From the NCBI GenBank assembly GCA_017616015.1, contig JAFZYY010000015.1, positions 62,001 to 126,000 of the forward strand: 64,000 nucleotides of DNA. The letters run 5' to 3'. Under the pieces are notes generated by a model, which did not search any database, was not told the origin of the DNA, and worked only from the letters and a program-made list of their open reading frames with translations. The stretch is from Alphaproteobacteria bacterium. GTDB lineage: Bacteria; Pseudomonadota; Alphaproteobacteria; CAAGCB01; CAG-977. The position numbers and the translations under genes were made by a program. Positions 10,311 to 18,855 of this stretch are shown here, piece after piece. How positions within the stretch are numbered: the first letter of the stretch is position 1; every line of letters starts with the position of its first letter.

Positions 10311-11051
10311 ATGCCCGTCAAAAAATACGACGTCATTTTCAGTCTGGGAGCCGCCTGCCTTTGTTCACAAATGCTGCGCAAAAAGAATTTGCAGTTCTGT
10401 TCTTATCCTTTCGACTGGATAGCGGGCGGAGATTTTGCTTTTCGCATTGATTTGCTTGTTTCCGGTTTCAAAGACTTTTTCAACAAAGAGGATTTGGCAT
10501 TCACCGGCGAACAAAACGGCAGTGAAACACACCCGTGCGAAATCTGCCTGAACAAAAGAACGGAAATGAAATTTCCCCACGATTTCCCGACGGGCGTCGA
10601 TTTTGAAACGGCCTGGCCGGAAGCCAACGAAAAATACGCCCGCCGCATCAAACGGCTGATTAACGACATCGAAAACGGCAAAGACATTCTGATCGTTTAC
10701 GTCATGCCGCCGAAGGAAGCCGTTGACTCCGACGCGGTTTTACGGGAATGCCATGATAAAATCGTCCGGCGTTTTCCGGATAAGAACGTCGATATTCTGT
10801 ATATTTCCTGCGCCGAAAAATATTCCGAAACAAACATCGGAGAACACGTCAGGAAAATCGCTTTCGACTTTGACCGCCCGGACGGCGTCCCGCCGTACGA
10901 CGTCCGCAAATTAAGAACAGCCGTCAATAATTACCGGCTACGGCAGACACTGTCCGACCGGATACGGAATTTTAAATTCAAAATGAAGAAAAGAATCGGC
11001 CGTTGGAAAAAGAAAGCCTCGCGTTATTTGACTTTCCGCCCGTCGCTGTAA
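10311..11051 (+). CDS. DUF1796 family putative cysteine peptidase
   Basis: A 246-residue protein whose start, YDVIFSLGAACLCSQ followed by SYPFDWI, matches the conserved N terminus of DUF1796, a papain-fold family suggested but not shown to be cysteine peptidases. A later segment, DILIVYVMP, resembles the family's core strand. No signal peptide is visible. The C terminus is very basic (KMKKRIGRWKKK). It follows ispDF by 12 bp, so it may be co-transcribed, but no functional link is evident. Its end overlaps the convergent guanine deaminase gene by 28 bp. Confidence 0.7.
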   Translation: MPVKKYDVIFSLGAACLCSQMLRKKNLQFCSYPFDWIAGGDFAFRIDLLVSGFKDFFNKEDLAFTGEQNGSETHPCEICLNKRTEMKFPHDFPTGVDFETAWPEANEKYARRIKRLINDIENGKDILIVYVMPPKEAVDSDAVLRECHDKIVRRFPDKNVDILYISCAEKYSETNIGEHVRKIAFDFDRPDGVPPYDVRKLRTAVNNYRLRQTLSDRIRNFKFKMKKRIGRWKKKASRYLTFRPSL

Positions 11052-12289
11052 ACGGCGACGATGTCGCGCTTTGTCATCAGGTAAAGCGCGCGTTCAAAGC
11101 GTTCTTTGACCGACAACTCTTTGGCCGGTTTCGGAAAAGCCGCGTCGTCGACGACAACGGCGTGCAGGCCGTCGCCTTTGGCAAAACCGCCGGCCGCGCC
11201 GAAAAATTTTGCGCCCGCCGTCGTGCCGAGGTAAAACGCTTCCGCCACCGTTAAAAATTCGTCCGTCCAGTTTGTCTGGATTCGCTTCATCTTGGACGCG
11301 CGAATGGCGGACGTCACGACCTGCGGCATCGCCAGCAAAGCCCCGCCCGCTATATCGGAGCCGAGCGTCACGCGCAAGCCTTCGTTCATCATGACGCGCA
11401 CGGGCGCGATGCCGCTGATCAGATTGATGTTGGAATCCGGACAGTGTGCGATCCAGACGCCTTTTTCTTTCATCGCTTTTCTTTCGCGTTCGTCGGAATG
11501 GACGCAGTGCGCCATCACGGTGCGGTCGTTGAACAGCCCGTATTTATCATAGCTTTCCCAGTATTGCGCACAGTCCGGGTGAAGCTCTTTGACCCACGCG
11601 ATTTCGGAAGTGTTTTCGGATAAATGCGACTGCACGGGCAGGTTTCTTTCCTGCGCCAGCTTTCCTAAAAACGCCATCAGCTCGTTTGTGCAGGTCGGCG
11701 TAAAGCGCGGCGTCAGAATCGGCTTGATATGTTCGAATTTACCGGAAGATTCGTCCAGCCACGTCATCGTTTCGCGCATGGATTCTTCGGTCGTTTCCGT
11801 CAGAATGTCGCCGGAGTTGCGATCCATGTTGACTTTGCCGACGCAACCGGTCATGCCCGCCTTTTCGAATTCTTCCATCAGAACCATTGTGGATTCGCGG
11901 TGCAGAGAGGAAAAAGCGCAAACGCGCGTCGTGCCGTTATCGACCATTTCTCTGGCCAAAGCGCGATAGACTTCGCGGGCGTAACCGGTATCTTTGAAAG
12001 CGGCTTCCGTCTTAAAGGTGTACGTGTTCAGCCAGTCCAGCAAGGGCAGGTCCATTCCCATGCCCAGCATCGCGTATTGCGGCGCGTGCATATGCATATC
12101 GGAAAAAGACGGCATAACCAGACGGTCGCCGTAATCGGTTACGGACGCATCGGCATAAGCTTCGGGCAATTCTGTTAAAACGTTTGATATTTTTCCGTTT
12201 TCCAGAATCAAATATCCGTTTTCCGTGATTTTCAATTCACCGAAAGCGGGCGCGTCGACGATATGTCCTTTAATGATCTGCACGGTCAT
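11024..12289 (-). CDS. guaD: Guanine deaminase
   Basis: Zinc amidohydrolase converting guanine to xanthine and ammonia; cytosolic. About 421 residues. The metal site is visible as SDMHMHAPQYAM (HxH), QSHLSEN, HCVHSDERE and LGSDIAGG. The segment LGMGMDLPLLDWLNTYTF is characteristic of GuaD among amidohydrolases. The ATG at 12289 lies 8-9 bp after AGGAAAGG; the GTG at 12298 would sit almost on that site and was rejected. The 5' leader carries a guanine-type riboswitch and its own promoter, tying expression to the enzyme's substrate. No xanthine dehydrogenase is nearby, so released ammonia may be the benefit. Confidence 0.93.
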   Translation of the reverse strand: MTVQIIKGHIVDAPAFGELKITENGYLILENGKISNVLTELPEAYADASVTDYGDRLVMPSFSDMHMHAPQYAMLGMGMDLPLLDWLNTYTFKTEAAFKDTGYAREVYRALAREMVDNGTTRVCAFSSLHRESTMVLMEEFEKAGMTGCVGKVNMDRNSGDILTETTEESMRETMTWLDESSGKFEHIKPILTPRFTPTCTNELMAFLGKLAQERNLPVQSHLSENTSEIAWVKELHPDCAQYWESYDKYGLFNDRTVMAHCVHSDERERKAMKEKGVWIAHCPDSNINLISGIAPVRVMMNEGLRVTLGSDIAGGALLAMPQVVTSAIRASKMKRIQTNWTDEFLTVAEAFYLGTTAGAKFFGAAGGFAKGDGLHAVVVDDAAFPKPAKELSVKERFERALYLMTKRDIVAVYSDGRKVK

Positions 12290-12313
12290 ATTCTTCACCT
12301 TTCCTCAGAGCAT

Positions 12314-12348
12314 AAAAAAAGCTCAAAACGCCGTGTCAAACGGAGCTT
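12314..12348 (-). terminator. guaD: Candidate riboswitch-controlled intrinsic terminator before guaD
   Basis: On the minus strand AAGCTC (12348-12343) can pair with GAGCTT (12324-12319), with a weaker inner CG/CG pairing, followed by seven consecutive T (12320-12314) about 24 bp before the guaD ATG. The stem is imperfect and asymmetric, so strength is uncertain. Its position between aptamer and start codon suggests a transcriptional expression platform. Confidence 0.55.
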
Positions 12349-12424
12349 CAAGCACTCATAGCAGAACACGGTCCTGTTCAGTAGAAACTTCCTCCGGCTT
12401 TAAGAGGAATTATATGAGCCGTTT
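12338..12424 (-). promoter_or_regulatory. Guanine-class purine riboswitch with swapped L2-L3 pairs
   Basis: Minus-strand RNA reads as a purine aptamer. P1 is CTCATA (12418-12413) with TATGAG (12360-12355). The junction TAA is followed by P2 TTCCTCT/GGAGGAA (7 bp with one G-T), loop L2 TAAAGCC, the invariant J2/3 GTTTCTAC (12388-12381), P3 GAACA/TGTTC, L3 GGACCG and a junction ending C-T-A-T. The base at aptamer position 74 is C (12361), which selects guanine over adenine. The canonical L2 GG / L3 CC pairs are replaced by CC (12397-12396) and GG (12374-12373). An outer AAACGG (12424-12419) can pair with CCGTTT (12343-12338), which overlaps the terminator. Found by hand folding only. Confidence 0.82.
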
Positions 12425-12429
12425 TTGAT

Positions 12430-12458
12430 TCTATAAGGATTCTTTTTTGAAAAGTCAA
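12430..12458 (-). promoter_or_regulatory. guaD: Sigma-70-type promoter for guaD
   Basis: TTGACT (12458-12453), a 17-bp spacer and TATAGA (12435-12430) on the minus strand give a near-consensus promoter. The -35 element overlaps the stop codon of the upstream methyltransferase gene. Initiation would fall near 12423, so the RNA would begin at the strand that extends riboswitch helix P1. Confidence 0.7.
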
Positions 12459-13134: not shown

Positions 13135-13866
13135 ATGGAAACGCTGGAATTGCCGCATACCGTGAAAGTCTACGAATCCGACCGCAAAGGCGAGTTGCAT
13201 CTGCGCAGTCTGTTCAACTTGCTGCAGGACGCCGCCGACAGACACGCGGACGCTTTAGGGTGCGGGTACGAATTCTGCCTGACGCGCGGCATCGGGTGGG
13301 TCGGCGCGAATTACCACCTGAAAATCAACCGCCTGCCACAACGGCACGAATCCTTTGTCTTAACGACATGGGCCAGCGGAAAAACCGCCGTGTGCGGTAT
13401 CCGCGATTTCAAAGCGGTCAACGAAAAGGGCGAATTGCTGTTCTGCGCGTCAAGCCAATGGGCGCTGATCGATTTAAACACCAAACGTCCCGTCAGCGTC
13501 GCCAAAAACCTGCCCGAATATCAACTGCACGAAGAGCGCATGATCGACACGAAATTTCCGGCAATCGCTTTTCCGGAAACGCCCGAAACGGAAATCCGCT
13601 TTCCCGTCCGGTACGAGGAAATAGACCTGAACAATCACGTCAACAACGCCGTTTATCCGGTCTGGGCGGCGGAAAGCGTGCCACACGACTTCCGTCTGGC
13701 TTGCGACATCGCGGAAATGGAAATCGCATTCAAAAAGCCCGCCGTTTTCGATGACGAAATCGTCGTTTTCACGCAAACGGACGGGTCGACAACGACGCAC
13801 AGAATTGCTTCGCCCGACAAGGAAAAAGAATTTTCCCGCGTACGGATTTCGTGGAAAAAAGCCTGA
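13135..13866 (+). CDS. Acyl-ACP thioesterase
   Basis: Double hot-dog thioesterase (PF01643-like) releasing fatty acids from acyl carrier protein; 243 residues. The N-terminal hot dog has SLFNLLQDAADRHADALG with helix residues typical of the family, plus RGIGWVGANYHLKI. The second has the catalytic-type segment EEIDLNNHVNNAVYP, with Asn and His placed as in plant FatA/FatB and bacterial homologues. GGAGAAGAAA precedes the ATG. Bacterial members are common in anaerobes and may tune lipid chain release; the chain-length preference cannot be inferred. Confidence 0.85.
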   Translation: METLELPHTVKVYESDRKGELHLRSLFNLLQDAADRHADALGCGYEFCLTRGIGWVGANYHLKINRLPQRHESFVLTTWASGKTAVCGIRDFKAVNEKGELLFCASSQWALIDLNTKRPVSVAKNLPEYQLHEERMIDTKFPAIAFPETPETEIRFPVRYEEIDLNNHVNNAVYPVWAAESVPHDFRLACDIAEMEIAFKKPAVFDDEIVVFTQTDGSTTTHRIASPDKEKEFSRVRISWKKA

Positions 13867-13988: not shown

Positions 13989-14627
13989 ATGAAAAATATT
14001 TACACACAGGAATCCGGCCGTTCCATGATCGAAATGCTGGGCGTTCTGGCAATCATCGGCGTGTTATCGGTTGGCGGTATCGCGGGATATTCTCAGGCGA
14101 TGTCGAAATTTAAAGTCAGCAAAACGACAGACCAAATTCAGACGATGGTGCAAAACATTCGCACACTGTTTTCATCGCAGAAAAACTATGACGGTTTGAA
14201 AACGAGCAACTCAAAGCTTCTTTATGCAGCGGGCATTCTGACCGATGAAAACTGCCCTGACAGCTCGGCCTGCACCACCCCGATGAATCCGTACGGCGGT
14301 ACTATCAAAATCGAATACACGAACGATGACGAAGGTCGTGCCAAAAGAGCTTTTGCCGTTACGTACAACGGTTTGCCGTCAGACGCCTGCGTCCGTTTGG
14401 CAACGCAGGGTTGGGGTGATACGGCGTCCGGTCTGATTGCTGTTCAGGCTAACAAGGAAGAGACCACCCCGACTGCGGGTATGGATATACCTGAGGAAGA
14501 TTTAGCCACAGAGGGTGCTACCGTGTCCTATACTAAAACCGCTCACGTTCCCATATCCTTTGAATCCGCGACAAAAGGCTGCGGCACGGGCGGAAGCGCG
14601 TCCAGTCTGACGCTGTACTATAAATAG
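13989..14627 (+). CDS. Type IV pilin-like protein, copy 1
   Basis: A 212-residue class III prepilin. The short leader MKNIYTQESG ends in Gly10 and is followed by RSMIE, giving the required Glu at mature position 5. The hydrophobic helix LGVLAIIGVLSVGGIAG follows. The globular part has four cysteines (ENCPD, SSACTT, SDACVRL, KGCGTGG), probably two disulfides, and ends SSLTLYYK. It resembles PilS-type major pilins. No assembly ATPase, prepilin peptidase or secretin is in the window, so the machinery must lie elsewhere. First of three tandem paralogues, each with its own leader and terminator. Confidence 0.87.
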   Translation: MKNIYTQESGRSMIEMLGVLAIIGVLSVGGIAGYSQAMSKFKVSKTTDQIQTMVQNIRTLFSSQKNYDGLKTSNSKLLYAAGILTDENCPDSSACTTPMNPYGGTIKIEYTNDDEGRAKRAFAVTYNGLPSDACVRLATQGWGDTASGLIAVQANKEETTPTAGMDIPEEDLATEGATVSYTKTAHVPISFESATKGCGTGGSASSLTLYYK

Positions 14628-14644
14628 TCGTTATTCTTTATTCC

Positions 14645-14676
14645 AAAAAAGGCGGGATTTTTATCCCGCCTTTTTT
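14645..14676 (+). terminator. Intrinsic terminator after pilin copy 1
   Basis: GGCGGGAT (14651-14658) and ATCCCGCC (14663-14670) form an 8-bp GC-rich stem followed by six T. The A-run before the stem would also let it work in the reverse direction. Confidence 0.9.
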
Positions 14677-14695
14677 ATTTTTCCGGCAAAACATT

Positions 14696-14806
14696 ATGAC
14701 TAAAGACATATCAGATATGTGTTTCTATAGGCTTGCGTACATTGCCTTTTAGCGGTAGGATAAAATAAGGCAGAAGGAGAATCCAGAAACGGAGGAGGGC
14801 GTTATC
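14696..14806 (+). promoter_or_regulatory. Upstream control region of pilin copy 2
   Basis: It shares GACTAAAG and the palindrome CATAT-CAG-ATATG (14707-14719) with the other two pilin leaders. The rest has diverged and is 15 bp longer: the motif ends 88 bp before the ATG instead of 73. GGAGGAGG lies before the start. Confidence 0.45.
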
Positions 14807-15514
14807 ATGAAAAACATTCATGCACAGGAATCCGGTCGTTCCATGATCGAAATACTAGGCGTTTTGGCCGTTATCGGCGTGCTGTCGGTCGGCGGTATCG
14901 CGGGTTATTCCCATGCGATGTCGAAATATAAAATCAATAAAACGATAGACCAGATGCAAACGATGGCTCAGAACATTCGCACACTGTTTGCATCGCAGAA
15001 AAATTACGAAGGCGTAGACTCGAAAGCCAATCCAAAGATGCTGTATGCCGCCGGCATTCTGACTGATGAAAACTGCCCTGACGGTTGCTCTACCACTCCG
15101 ATAAATCCGTACGGCGGAGTAATCGCTATCGGTTTTACAAAAGATGACGAAAATCATTCCAAAAGAGGTTTTGCCATCGCATTCAGCGGTTTGCCGTCAG
15201 ATGTCTGTACCCGTTTGGCGACACAGAATTGGGGGGACGCGACCTCCGGCTTGATTGCTGTGGAAGCCAAAAGCACAAACGTTGCTTCCATATCCAAAGA
15301 CGCCTCTATCCCCGGAAACGAAAAACCGCAGAATAATAATAACATAGCCCTTCCTTTCCAAAAATCGGTAGTAGCGAAGGTAGCGCCAATGGAAACGACA
15401 GGTTCCAGCGTAGCCCTCACGAAAAACGCCGCTGTTCCGATGTCCTTATCGGCGGCGACAACAGGTTGCGGCACGGGCGGAAATACATCAAGTCTGACGC
15501 TGTACTATAAATAA
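14807..15514 (+). CDS. Type IV pilin-like protein, copy 2
   Basis: A 235-residue prepilin with leader MKNIHAQESG, then RSMIE (Glu at +5) and a helix closely matching copies 1 and 3. It carries four globular cysteines like its paralogues (ENCPDG, GCSTT, SDVCTRL, TGCGTGG). The variable C-terminal third is longer, with an Asn/Pro-rich linker (KPQNNNN) around residues 165-200 before the shared TSSLTLYYK end. Its leader differs more from the other two than they do from each other, so it is the oldest or most diverged copy. Role as alternative major pilin or minor pilin cannot be decided. Confidence 0.87.
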   Translation: MKNIHAQESGRSMIEILGVLAVIGVLSVGGIAGYSHAMSKYKINKTIDQMQTMAQNIRTLFASQKNYEGVDSKANPKMLYAAGILTDENCPDGCSTTPINPYGGVIAIGFTKDDENHSKRGFAIAFSGLPSDVCTRLATQNWGDATSGLIAVEAKSTNVASISKDASIPGNEKPQNNNNIALPFQKSVVAKVAPMETTGSSVALTKNAAVPMSLSAATTGCGTGGNTSSLTLYYK

Positions 15515-15534
15515 CCGTTATTCTTTATTTCAAA

Positions 15535-15567
15535 AAAGGCGGGGTTTTTATCCCGCTTTTTTTATTT
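15535..15567 (+). terminator. Intrinsic terminator after pilin copy 2
   Basis: GCGGG and CCCGC around a short T-rich loop, followed by eight T. It is an eroded version of the terminators after copies 1 and 3. Confidence 0.85.
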
Positions 15568-15580
15568 TTCCGGCAGAATA

Positions 15581-15677
15581 TATAACTAAAGGCATATCAT
15601 ATATGAGGTTTTACAGGCTTGTTTTTATGGATTTTTGGTTGTTAGAATAAAGGTAGAGTCAGCAATGGAGGATTATC
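15581..15677 (+). promoter_or_regulatory. Upstream control region of pilin copy 3
   Basis: Near-duplicate of the copy 1 leader. The motif CATAT-CAT-ATATG lies at 15593-15605, ending 73 bp before the ATG, exactly as in copy 1. The GTTAGAATAAAGGTAGAG block and GGAGGA site are also shared. Confidence 0.5.
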
Positions 15678-16307
15678 ATGACAAACATTCATACACAGGA
15701 ATCCGGTCGTTCCATGATCGAAATGCTGGGCGTTCTGGCAATTATCGGCGTGTTGTCGGTCGGCGGTATCGCGGGATATTCTCAGGCGATGTCGAAATTT
15801 AAAGTCAGCAAAACGACAGACCAAATTCAGACGATGGTGACAAACATTCGTACATTGTTTTCATCACAGAAAAACTATGACGGGTTGGATACGGCTAATT
15901 CTGAACTTCTGTATTCCGCCGGCATTCTGACCGATGAAAACTGCCCTGACGGTTCGTCCTGCTCAACCCCGATGAATCCGTACGGCGGTACAATCGTAAT
16001 TAAGTATACGAAAGATGACCAGGCTCGTGTTAAAAGAGCTTTTGCTATCATATACAACGGCTTGCCGTCAGACGCCTGCGTTCGTTTGGCGTCGCAAAAC
16101 TGGGGCGATACGGCGTCCGGTTTGATAGCCGTGCATGCCAAAAGCTCGGTAGGTACCGTACCCGACACTATTCCCGGCGAAGCTACATCAGCAGGAACTT
16201 CGGTGAACTACACCAAAACGGCTCATGTTCCCGTGTCCTTTTCAAACGCATCAACGGGTTGCGGCACGGGCGGAAGCGCTTCCAGTATTACGCTGTTCTA
16301 TAAATAG
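15678..16307 (+). CDS. Type IV pilin-like protein, copy 3
   Basis: A 209-residue prepilin; leader MTNIHTQESG, then RSMIE and the same hydrophobic helix as copy 1. The first 60 residues differ from copy 1 at only a few positions, while the region from about 65 on, especially around 150-185, is divergent. Four cysteines are conserved. This pattern of a conserved N terminus with a variable surface region fits duplication and diversification, possibly recombination between copies. It is followed by its own GC-rich terminator. Confidence 0.87.
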   Translation: MTNIHTQESGRSMIEMLGVLAIIGVLSVGGIAGYSQAMSKFKVSKTTDQIQTMVTNIRTLFSSQKNYDGLDTANSELLYSAGILTDENCPDGSSCSTPMNPYGGTIVIKYTKDDQARVKRAFAIIYNGLPSDACVRLASQNWGDTASGLIAVHAKSSVGTVPDTIPGEATSAGTSVNYTKTAHVPVSFSNASTGCGTGGSASSITLFYK

Positions 16308-17082: not shown

Positions 17083-18855
17083 TTACGGAATAAACGGCGA
17101 CAGATAGATCAGCCCGTTATCGATTTTAAACATCATTTCGACACCGGCTTCGCGCAGCTTCTTTTCGTCCATCAGCGCCTGATTTTTCAGCCGGACATGC
17201 AAGCCGCCGTCCGCCGCATGCTCGCCGCTTTCGATGTTGTTTTCTCCGCCCAACGCCTTCTTTATCGCTTCGGAAAAGGAAAACGTCTTTTCAGCGACGG
17301 GAATATCGCGCGAATGAGTGCGCAGGTATTCCTCCATATCGGTTTTCAGATTTTCCGACGCCGTGCCGAACACCGCCTGCACGCCCGATCCGATGTGCAT
17401 GACGCCCGTCGCGCCCAGCTCTTTCAGCTTTGCATCATCGGCTTTATCCGGATCGTTCAGAATCAATCGCAAACGGGTAATGCAAGCGTCAAGATTCTTG
17501 ATGTTTTCGCGCCCGCCGAACGCTTCGACCAACTTCGCCGCCATTTTCATTTTATCCCCGTGCCGCGCCGGAGCCGCCGCCTGCGCCGCGGGAACGGCGG
17601 CAGAGTCTTCGTCGCGGCCGGGAGTCTTCATATTAAACGCCGTGATGACAGAGCGGAAAACGACGTAATACAAAACGGCGTATATCGGCCCCAGAATAAA
17701 GACGACCCACGGCTTCGTATCCAGAGGATAGAATAAAATGAAGTCGATTGCCCCCTGCGAAAACGTATAGCCGATGTGCGCGCCGACAAGATTGATCAGC
17801 GCAAAAGCGGAACCGACCATGACGGCATGAATGAAATACAGCATCGGCGCGACGAACAGGAACGTGAATTCCAGCGGTTCCGTGATACCCGTCAGAAAAG
17901 AAGTCAACGCCGCGGACGCCATAATGCCGCCGACTCTCAGACGGTTTTCGGGCTTGGCCGTATGCAGGATCGCCAGCGCCGCCGCGGGCAGGCCGAACAT
18001 CTTGATTAAGAACCCGCCGCCCAAAATGCCGGCCGTCTTGTCGCCCGCGAAAAAGCGGGGAATGTCGCCCGTGACGACTTCGCCCAGCTTGTTCGTATAA
18101 GACCCGATTTCAAAAAAGAACGGCACGTTCCAGATATGATGCAGTCCGAACGGAAGCAACAGTCTTTCGACAAAGCCGTACGTCGCTCCCGCGACCGTCG
18201 GCGCGCTGTACGCCGCCCACATCGAAAATTCGTTGATTTTTTCCTGAATCGGCGGCCAGAACAGGCTTAAAAACACGCCTAAAGCAATCGCTACCAAAGA
18301 GGTAATGATTGGCACGGAACGCTTGCCCGCGAAGAATCCCAGATAAGGCGGCAACTGGATTCTGTAAAACCGTTTATAGATATGCGCCGCGACGACACCG
18401 ACGAACAAGCCGCCGAAAACGCCCGTTTCGATTGTTTTAATCCCCATGTTCGTCGCCACGATTTTCCGGGCAAACGCGACGTCGTAATCCAACGACTGCG
18501 CCAAAACGCCCAGCGTTTCCTGTCCTTCGGAAACGTGGAACCACAGCACGTCCGCCATCACGCCCATCGTCGCCAGCATCACGATGAATCCCGTGACCGC
18601 CGCCAACGCCGCGACGCCGTCGTTGTCCGTCAGCCCCAACGTCGTGCCAATAGCGAAAATCAGCGGCATATTCGCGAAAATCACGTTGCCGCTCTGACTC
18701 ATGATTTGAGGAATGATCGGAGGAATCCAAGAGATTTCCGCCGTCAAAAGCCCCGACCCTATGCCTAAAAGCAATCCCGCAACCGGCAGGACGGCGACCG
18801 GCAGCATCAGGGATTTCCCGATTTGTTGCAAGAACATAAACGCTTGTCTGACCAT
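17083..18855 (-). CDS. PTS sugar permease IIC-IIB (glucose/N-acetylglucosamine family)
   Basis: Membrane permease that takes up and phosphorylates a hexose. In 590 residues: an EIIC domain (about 1-390) with [15 protein letters not shown] and [18 protein letters not shown]; an EIIB domain near 425-505 with phospho-accepting Cys458 in [10 protein letters not shown]; and a second EIIB-like copy at about 525-590 ([11 protein letters not shown]) in which the Cys-containing motif is replaced. The Glc/GlcNAc family fit is clear; the sugar is not. No nagA, nagB or glucose enzymes are adjacent. It starts 3 bp after the IIA-HPr-EI gene, giving a self-contained two-gene PTS. Confidence 0.9.

What the first reader, a model, noticed from the sequence alone, without database searches (positions are those of the whole stretch)
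12338..12424. Guanine riboswitch with an inverted loop-loop base-pair set
All junction bases of a purine aptamer are present, including the J2/3 GTTTCTAC and C at position 74 (guanine-type). The tertiary kissing pairs normally formed by L2 G37-G38 with L3 C60-C61 are exchanged as a set: L2 has CC at 37-38 and L3 has GG at 60-61. A compensatory double swap is strong evidence for a real fold and an unusual variant; purine riboswitches are mostly known from Firmicutes. L3 is also one base short.
Basis: partly seen in the sequence, partly recalled or inferred. Interest (0 to 1): 0.75.

Follow-up and report, generated by a model that had tools for sequence, protein, structure and literature searches.

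The report
Guanine riboswitch with altered loop contact
A gut or rumen alphaproteobacterium carries, in front of its guanine-degrading enzyme gene, an RNA sensor that looks like the guanine riboswitch of Firmicutes and was probably acquired with that gene, and its whole genus has lost the loop-to-loop letters that every Firmicutes copy sampled here keeps.

Summary
On the minus strand, window 12354-12419 is a purine-riboswitch three-way junction: J1/2 UAA, J2/3 GUUUCUAC, C74, L2 ending CC and L3 starting GG. Rfam RF00167 scores it 33.2 bits, below the gathering score of 37. It is the only hit in the genome and lies between a sigma70-type promoter and guaD (guanine deaminase), with a terminator in between. 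All seven genus members have it in the same place. About 34 of 36 P1/junction/inner-P2 columns are invariant, against 10% of four-fold sites in guaD. GuaD nests inside Firmicutes guaD that carry a guanine riboswitch (100/99), and no other Pseudomonadota sampled has a close GuaD, so gene and riboswitch probably came together from Firmicutes.

All 46 non-genus aptamers compared keep L2 GG and L3 CC; the genus has none. The CC/GG exchange occurs only in the window's species and two sisters; the other four species have neither form. Alone it is a 1.6-6% coincidence, and here it amounts to two weak pairs. The loop contact is better described as replaced or lost than cleanly inverted. Guanine is the likely ligand. 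Direction is ON in Firmicutes relatives, unresolved here. New variant of a known kind.

The parts
12453..12458 (-). -35 element TTGACT
   Evidence: TTGACN at the same place with a 17-nt spacer in all seven genus species; coordinates; the tool's strict sigma70 scan does not list it because the -10 ends in A
12430..12435 (-). -10 element TATAGA (TATAAA in relatives); predicted RNA start near 12423, just before P1
12354..12419 (-). Guanine-type aptamer core (P1-P2-P3 three-way junction)
   Evidence: RF00167 33.2 bits; same element in all seven genus species
12413..12419 (-). P1 5' strand GCUCAUA
   Evidence: pairs with 12354-12360 UAUGAGU, 7 bp
12396..12402 (-). L2 UAAAGCC, with C37 C38 at 12397 and 12396 (GG in all Firmicutes relatives)
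12381..12388 (-). J2/3 GUUUCUAC (U47, U51 ligand-contacting positions)
12369..12374 (-). L3 GGACCG, with G60 G61 at 12374 and 12373 (CC in all Firmicutes relatives); 6 nt
12361..12362 (-). J3/1 G73 C74; C74 specifies guanine-type recognition; G73 replaces the usual A73
12314..12353 (-). Intrinsic terminator GCUUGAAGC-U-CCGU(UUGAC)ACGG-C-GUUUUGAGC followed by U7; abuts P1 without overlap
   Evidence: -15.3 kcal/mol; probability 0.98 or more with or without the aptamer forced
12298..12306 (-). Shine-Dalgarno-like GAGGAAAGG
11024..12289 (-). guaD, guanine deaminase (ATG at 12289; a longer GTG-start ORF begins at 12298)
   Evidence: TIGR02967 354.8 bits, E 6e-106, slightly below its cut-off of 375.4; PF01979

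Best explanation
This is the leader of the guaD mRNA in an uncultured rumen/gut alphaproteobacterium. It holds a guanine-binding aptamer of the guanine-I (purine) type, followed directly by an intrinsic terminator. Guanine binding to the conserved pocket should change how the terminator competes during transcription, and so set guanine deaminase output by the guanine level. guaD and the riboswitch were acquired together from a Firmicutes donor (well supported). In the Firmicutes relatives the 3' strand of P1 is part of the terminator, so guanine would switch guaD ON. In this genus the overlap has shrunk to 4 nt or to none, so ON is the likeliest direction only by descent and by metabolic logic (inferred, about 55%). 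Since the transfer, the L2-L3 contact has changed in the whole genus: the canonical GG/CC letters are gone, three species including this one have CC/GG instead, and four have neither. Shown here: aptamer anatomy, conservation, gene context, ancestry, loss of the canonical loop letters. Inferred: ligand, switch direction, and any loop-loop contact in three dimensions.
For: RF00167 hit in the window and in five further genus members, one hit per genome, each ahead of guaD; the seventh member (G001) has it too but was missed by RF00167. P1 and junction columns nearly invariant (about 34 of 36) while only 10% of four-fold sites in guaD are invariant across the same seven species, so the pocket is under strong selection. 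Pocket bases J1/2 UAA, J2/3 GUNUCUAC and C74 as in the non-genus guanine aptamers. Stem covariation between genus and Firmicutes in P2 and P3: 5 pairs with changes on both sides, 16 cells against 6.5 in shuffles, 0 of 500 shuffles as high. A promoter with 17-nt spacing places the RNA start at P1 in all seven. GuaD tree: this family sits inside Firmicutes guaD genes with a guanine riboswitch, 100/100 and 100/99. GuaD is 54-61% identical to those (full-length comparisons) but 33-34% to other alphaproteobacteria; no other Pseudomonadota of 269 sampled matches at 1e-80; 20 further Firmicutes guaD at 36-46% have no aptamer nearby. ON architecture in Firmicutes L012, L022 and L024: forcing the aptamer abolishes terminator pairs.
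Against: RF00167 score below its gathering cut-off. In the window's species the terminator forms equally with and without the aptamer at equilibrium (0.98 against 1.00), so no switching is predicted by simple thermodynamics. One species (G004) lacks a U-tract after the hairpin, and relatives in the sister genus have guaD without any aptamer, so the system may be degenerating. UUCG tetraloops in place of L2/L3 abolished hypoxanthine binding in the B. subtilis aptamer (PMC5480868), so loss of the loop contact could weaken binding.
Confidence: 0.82

Rival explanations
1. Inverted kissing loop: a true guanine riboswitch whose L2-L3 Watson-Crick pairs are exchanged as a set, C37-G61 and C38-G60, in the canonical geometry.
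For: CC in L2 and GG in L3 at the canonical positions in three species that form one clade (100/100); L2 outside GCC varies among them; cognate loop duplexes -6.5 kcal/mol (G001) and -3.3 (G002). Under the MAFFT alignment column pair 23-47 (37-61) is C-G in three and U-A in three of seven species.
Against: Only -0.5 kcal/mol in the window's own species; the permutation test over loop pairs is not significant, P 0.10; P2 in G001/G002 is predicted as 8 bp with a tetraloop, using the second C, and L3 GG can pair inside a shifted P3 in G000/G001; loop and stem lengths differ from canonical (L3 6 or 5 nt; G002 P3-L3 15 nt against 18-21 as a rule); sister species have neither form.
Confidence: 0.3
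2. OFF switch in this species: ligand-bound P1 stacks on an unimpeded terminator, and without guanine J2/3 (GUUUC) plus the 5' end (AAACGG) pair with the terminator's 5' arm (GAAGC, CCGUUU) as an antiterminator.
For: P1 and terminator do not overlap in G000, G001 and G002; the transcript cut before the terminator's 3' arm has this antiterminator as its minimum-energy fold at -22.9 (G000) and -26.1 kcal/mol (G001), with P1 at about 0.5.
Against: In G002 the truncated leader keeps P1 (0.94) and the full-length terminator is at 0.98-1.0 in all three; shutting off guanine deaminase when guanine is abundant is metabolically odd; the Firmicutes relatives are ON.
Confidence: 0.25
3. Decaying relic: the riboswitch is losing function in this lineage (loop contact lost, P1-terminator overlap lost, terminator lost in G004, whole element absent in the sister genus).
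For: Canonical loop letters absent in all seven; G004 lacks a U-tract; the sister genus has guaD without the aptamer, in G009 with the same upstream gene and promoter spacing.
Against: Pocket and P1 are almost invariant over a divergence at which 90% of four-fold sites have changed at least once, which relics do not show.
Confidence: 0.12
4. Chance resemblance: an AU-rich hairpin cluster that matches the purine model by accident.
For: Score below the gathering cut-off; spurious AU-rich purine hits are known (PMC2258182).
Against: Seven of seven species, the same place, all pocket bases, and an evolutionary link to guanine-riboswitch-bearing guaD.
Confidence: 0.01

Closest known systems
Guanine-I (purine) riboswitch, Rfam RF00167, e.g. 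B. subtilis xpt and yxjA
   Same: Three-way junction; J1/2 UAA, J2/3 GUUUCUAC, U22, U47, U51, C74; cis position ahead of a purine gene; intrinsic terminator downstream.
   Different: Scores 33.2 bits against a cut-off of 37; L2 lacks GG and L3 lacks CC at the canonical places in all seven genus members; G73 for A73; U54.U72 mismatch; found in Alphaproteobacteria.
Firmicutes guanine riboswitches ahead of guaD or purine-catabolic genes (L011, L012, L014, L015, L020, L022, L024, L028 here)
   Same: G73, short P3, CUCAUA/UAUGGG-like P1, the same guaD family, terminator next to P1; probable ancestor type.
   Different: They keep GG/CC in the loops and, in L012, L022 and L024, have P1 inside the terminator (ON design).
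Guanine-II and xanthine-II variants (PMC9295807)
   Same: Derived from the guanine-I scaffold; linked to purine salvage or degradation; predicted ON.
   Different: Those have insertions in J2/3 or J3/1 and, in xanthine-II, U51G; none of that is present here.
Guanine riboswitch laboratory mutant G37A/C61U (PMC5480868)
   Same: A changed L2-L3 pair with the pocket intact; its binding becomes Mg2+-dependent.
   Different: Engineered, a single pair; here the whole canonical loop motif is gone in a natural lineage.

Membership tests
Purine riboswitch RF00167 (guanine-I type) | Covariance-model score at or above the curated gathering score (37 bits) | tested here: not met
   33.2 bits; 26.9-35.7 in other genus members, G001 not detected
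Purine riboswitch RF00167 (guanine-I type) | P1, P2 and P3 around a three-way junction | tested here: met
   91% of stem cells paired over 11 sequences, covariation above all 500 shuffles
Purine riboswitch RF00167 (guanine-I type) | J1/2 U22 A23 and J2/3 G46 U47 N48 U49 C50 U51 A52 C53 | tested here: met
   All seven genus members
Purine riboswitch RF00167 (guanine-I type) | C74 for guanine (U74 for adenine) | tested here: met
   C74 in all seven
Purine riboswitch RF00167 (guanine-I type) | L2 G37 G38 and L3 C60 C61 kissing pairs, reported universally conserved (PMC3764141) | tested here: not met
   0 of 7 genus members against 46 of 46 other aptamers
Purine riboswitch RF00167 (guanine-I type) | Binding of guanine | not testable with these tools
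   Needs in-line probing or calorimetry
Xanthine-II riboswitch | U51G and insertions in J2/3 and J3/1 | tested here: not met
   U51 kept and no insertions; features from PMC9295807
Guanine-II riboswitch | One-nucleotide insertion in J2/3 with other guanine-II changes | tested here: not met
   J2/3 is exactly GUUUCUAC; features from PMC9295807
Adenine riboswitch | U74 | tested here: not met
   C74
ON-type transcriptional riboswitch | P1 3' strand shared with the terminator so that the ligand-bound aptamer excludes it | tested here: inconclusive
   0 nt shared in G000-G002, 4 nt in G003, G005 and G006, 7 nt in Firmicutes L012, L022 and L024

The most novel reading that the evidence does not exclude
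After transfer from Firmicutes, a guanine riboswitch lineage discarded the otherwise universal L2-L3 kissing motif and, within one genus, replaced it in at least two ways (C37-G61/C38-G60 in one clade; weak or no contact, possibly C33-G66/G34-C65, in the others), while the ligand pocket stayed frozen. This would be a natural demonstration that the kissing loop is replaceable or dispensable for function.
Probability: 0.35. Interest if true: 0.65.

Novelty: new variant of a known kind. Interest (0 to 1): 0.45.

Why it matters
The loop-loop contact of the purine riboswitch is a textbook example of a remote tertiary contact needed to pre-organise a ligand pocket, and it is reported as universally conserved. 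A natural genus-wide set of guanine aptamers without its letters, with the pocket intact and a recognisable Firmicutes ancestor type, makes the question of how much that contact is needed directly testable. It also documents transfer of a riboswitch with its gene from Firmicutes into Alphaproteobacteria, and it shows that curated covariance-model cut-offs miss this lineage.

Tried and rejected
Chance similarity: rejected by conservation in seven species. Xanthine-II, guanine-II and adenine types: rejected by pocket letters. Alternative kissing between L2 (C/U)GG and L3 CCG at the 3' side of L3: considered because the letters are often complementary, but the GG lies in P2 and no consistent register was found. 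Extended P1 (AAACGG/CCGUUU) as an ON device in the window's species: possible on paper, but the terminator (-15.3 kcal/mol) outcompetes it at equilibrium. Class-wide search with RF00167 under strict filters missed even the window's own hit, so it was repeated with a model built here. That model contains the genus sequences, so its scores for them are circular and are not used as evidence. Literature searches for a purine riboswitch with guanine deaminase in Alphaproteobacteria returned nothing.

Full report
WHAT IS THERE. The order 5'->3' is: promoter TTGACT-17 nt-TATAGA (12430-12458), aptamer core 12354-12419, terminator 12314-12353 with U7, Shine-Dalgarno-like GAGGAAAGG, and guaD from ATG 12289 to 11024. 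guaD matches TIGR02967 guanine deaminase at E 6e-106, 354.8 bits, slightly under its cut-off of 375.4. RF00167 (Purine) matches 12339-12437(-) with 33.2 bits, under its gathering score of 37, and is the only purine match in the 2.09 Mb genome at E<=10. The default Rfam scan therefore reports nothing in the window.

RELATIVES. All seven genomes of the genus have the element directly ahead of guaD: six found with RF00167, the seventh (G001) by a DNA pattern and by reading upstream of its guaD. Named records are rumen alphaproteobacterial MAGs ('uncultured Rhodospirillales' RUG12246; RGIG5000 from roe deer rumen, RGIG6957 from sheep rumen) and BRZ bins of 'uncultured Alphaproteobacteria'. The promoter spacing is 17 nt in every species and puts the predicted RNA start at P1. 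Three genomes of a sister genus have guaD (67-72% identity) without any aptamer. One of them, G009, has the same upstream methyltransferase gene and a TTGATT-17-TATAAA promoter, with the riboswitch missing in between.

SELECTION. In the alignment of the seven cores the P1 strands, junctions and inner P2 are nearly invariant: about 34 of 36 columns, the exceptions being the naturally variable position 48 and one A-to-G in P1. Of 120 four-fold degenerate sites in the same seven guaD genes only 10% are invariant. The pocket is thus held by selection, whereas L2 and L3 change in sequence and length. Between genus and Firmicutes guaD aptamers P2 and P3 covary (five pairs with changes on both sides, 16 cells against 6.5 in shuffles; covariation score above all 500 shuffles). 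Within the genus the stems hardly vary, so they say little by themselves.

ORIGIN. GuaD of this family is 54-61% identical to GuaD in Firmicutes loci that carry a guanine aptamer, but only 33-34% to GuaD of other alphaproteobacteria. No other genome of 269 sampled Pseudomonadota matches at E<=1e-80. In the tree the ten family members form one clade nested in the Firmicutes riboswitch-bearing GuaD clade (100/100 for the whole clade, 100/99 and 100/98 on the way in). Twenty other Firmicutes guaD genes (36-46%) lie outside that clade and have no aptamer nearby. Acquisition of guaD together with its riboswitch from Firmicutes, with loss in the sister genus, is the simplest account. Caveat: the Firmicutes riboswitch-bearing loci were found by an aptamer pattern, so their clustering is partly ascertained. 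In 385 class-wide genomes only this genus and one genome of an unrelated family (G116, ahead of purL, RF00167 58.6 bits) gave hits.

THE LOOPS. In the 46 non-genus aptamers compared (Clostridia, Bacilli, Thermotogae and others) L2 ends in GG and L3 begins with CC without exception (in a few, CC follows one extra stem-closing base); in the genus none of seven does. PMC3764141 lists these positions as universally conserved. The window's species has CC and GG instead. G001 and G002, which form a 100/100 clade with it, also have GCC in L2 and GG in L3. The other four species have L2 GCGUAU, GCGUAC, GCGUUGU or CCGUCG and L3 GAGUCCG or AAGUCCG: neither form, at best C33-G66 and G34-C65. Loop-loop duplex energies are -0.5 (G000), -6.5 (G001), -3.3 (G002) and near zero or above in the rest; cognate pairs are not significantly better than permuted pairs (P 0.10). 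In G001 and G002 the predicted P2 is 8 bp with a tetraloop and its last pair uses the second C, and in G000 and G001 the L3 GG can pair in a shifted P3. Hence CC/GG is real as letters and may be a contact in one clade, but it is not a clean, genus-wide inversion. A G37A mutant still binds guanine and a G37A/C61U mutant binds hypoxanthine only with Mg2+, whereas UUCG loops abolish hypoxanthine binding (PMC5480868). Guanine binding with a weakened contact is therefore plausible.

SPECIFICITY. U22, U47, U51 and C74 are those of guanine-I. There is no J2/3 or J3/1 insertion and no U51G, so it is neither guanine-II nor xanthine-II as described in PMC9295807. G73 replaces A73, but Firmicutes aptamers also have G73 (the pattern scan required it, and two of the best Clostridia hits from the model search have it too). 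Guanine is the most likely ligand, as the enzyme's substrate.

DIRECTION. In Firmicutes L012, L022 and L024 P1 shares 7 nt with the terminator and forcing the aptamer removes terminator pairs: an ON switch. In G003, G005 and G006 the overlap is 4 nt and only the pairs next to the U-tract are lost. In G000, G001 and G002 there is no overlap and the terminator is at 0.98-1.00 with or without the aptamer. In G004 there is no U-tract. For the window's species the direction cannot be decided from energies; ON is favoured by descent and metabolism, while OFF through a J2/3 antiterminator is a live rival.

VERDICT. A guanine-type riboswitch in a lineage where it was not expected, missed by curated cut-offs, with the canonical loop contact replaced or lost. 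It works like a guanine riboswitch (inferred) and descends from one (supported), but fails two tests used to file canonical members (gathering score, loop motif), so it is called a variant.

Noticed in passing
L039 (G116:C7:59286-59383, +): A second, unrelated alphaproteobacterial genome (another family) has a strong canonical purine riboswitch (RF00167 58.6 bits, loops GG/CC) ahead of purL (TIGR01857), divergent from a purH-like gene. The genome's placement and possible contamination were not checked.
   Followed up: partly
L002 (G004), leader of guaD: The aptamer is intact but the hairpin after it has no U-tract; control may be translational or lost.
   Followed up: partly
L036, L037, L038 (sister genus, G010, G009, G011): guaD without any aptamer; in G009 the same upstream methyltransferase gene and promoter spacing are kept, so the riboswitch was lost from, or never present at, the place between promoter and gene.
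   Followed up: partly
L011, L014, L015, L028: Firmicutes guanine aptamers with G73 stand ahead of apparent hydantoinase/dihydropyrimidinase-like genes with guaD further downstream: possible guanine-induced purine-degradation operons. The hydantoinase naming is by eye, not tested.
   Followed up: no
window 13989-16307 (+): Three tandem pilin-like paralogues of about 210-235 aa with near-identical N-termini (SMIE-LGVLA-IGVLSVGGIAGYS) and diverged C-termini; the first gives only weak prepilin hits.
   Followed up: no
window 17083-18855 (-): Glucose-specific PTS transporter IIBC (NF008301 656.8 bits), unusual for an alphaproteobacterium and possibly another gene acquired in the gut.
   Followed up: no
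window 13135-13866 (+): Acyl-ACP thioesterase (PF01643/PF20791) next to the guaD locus.
   Followed up: no
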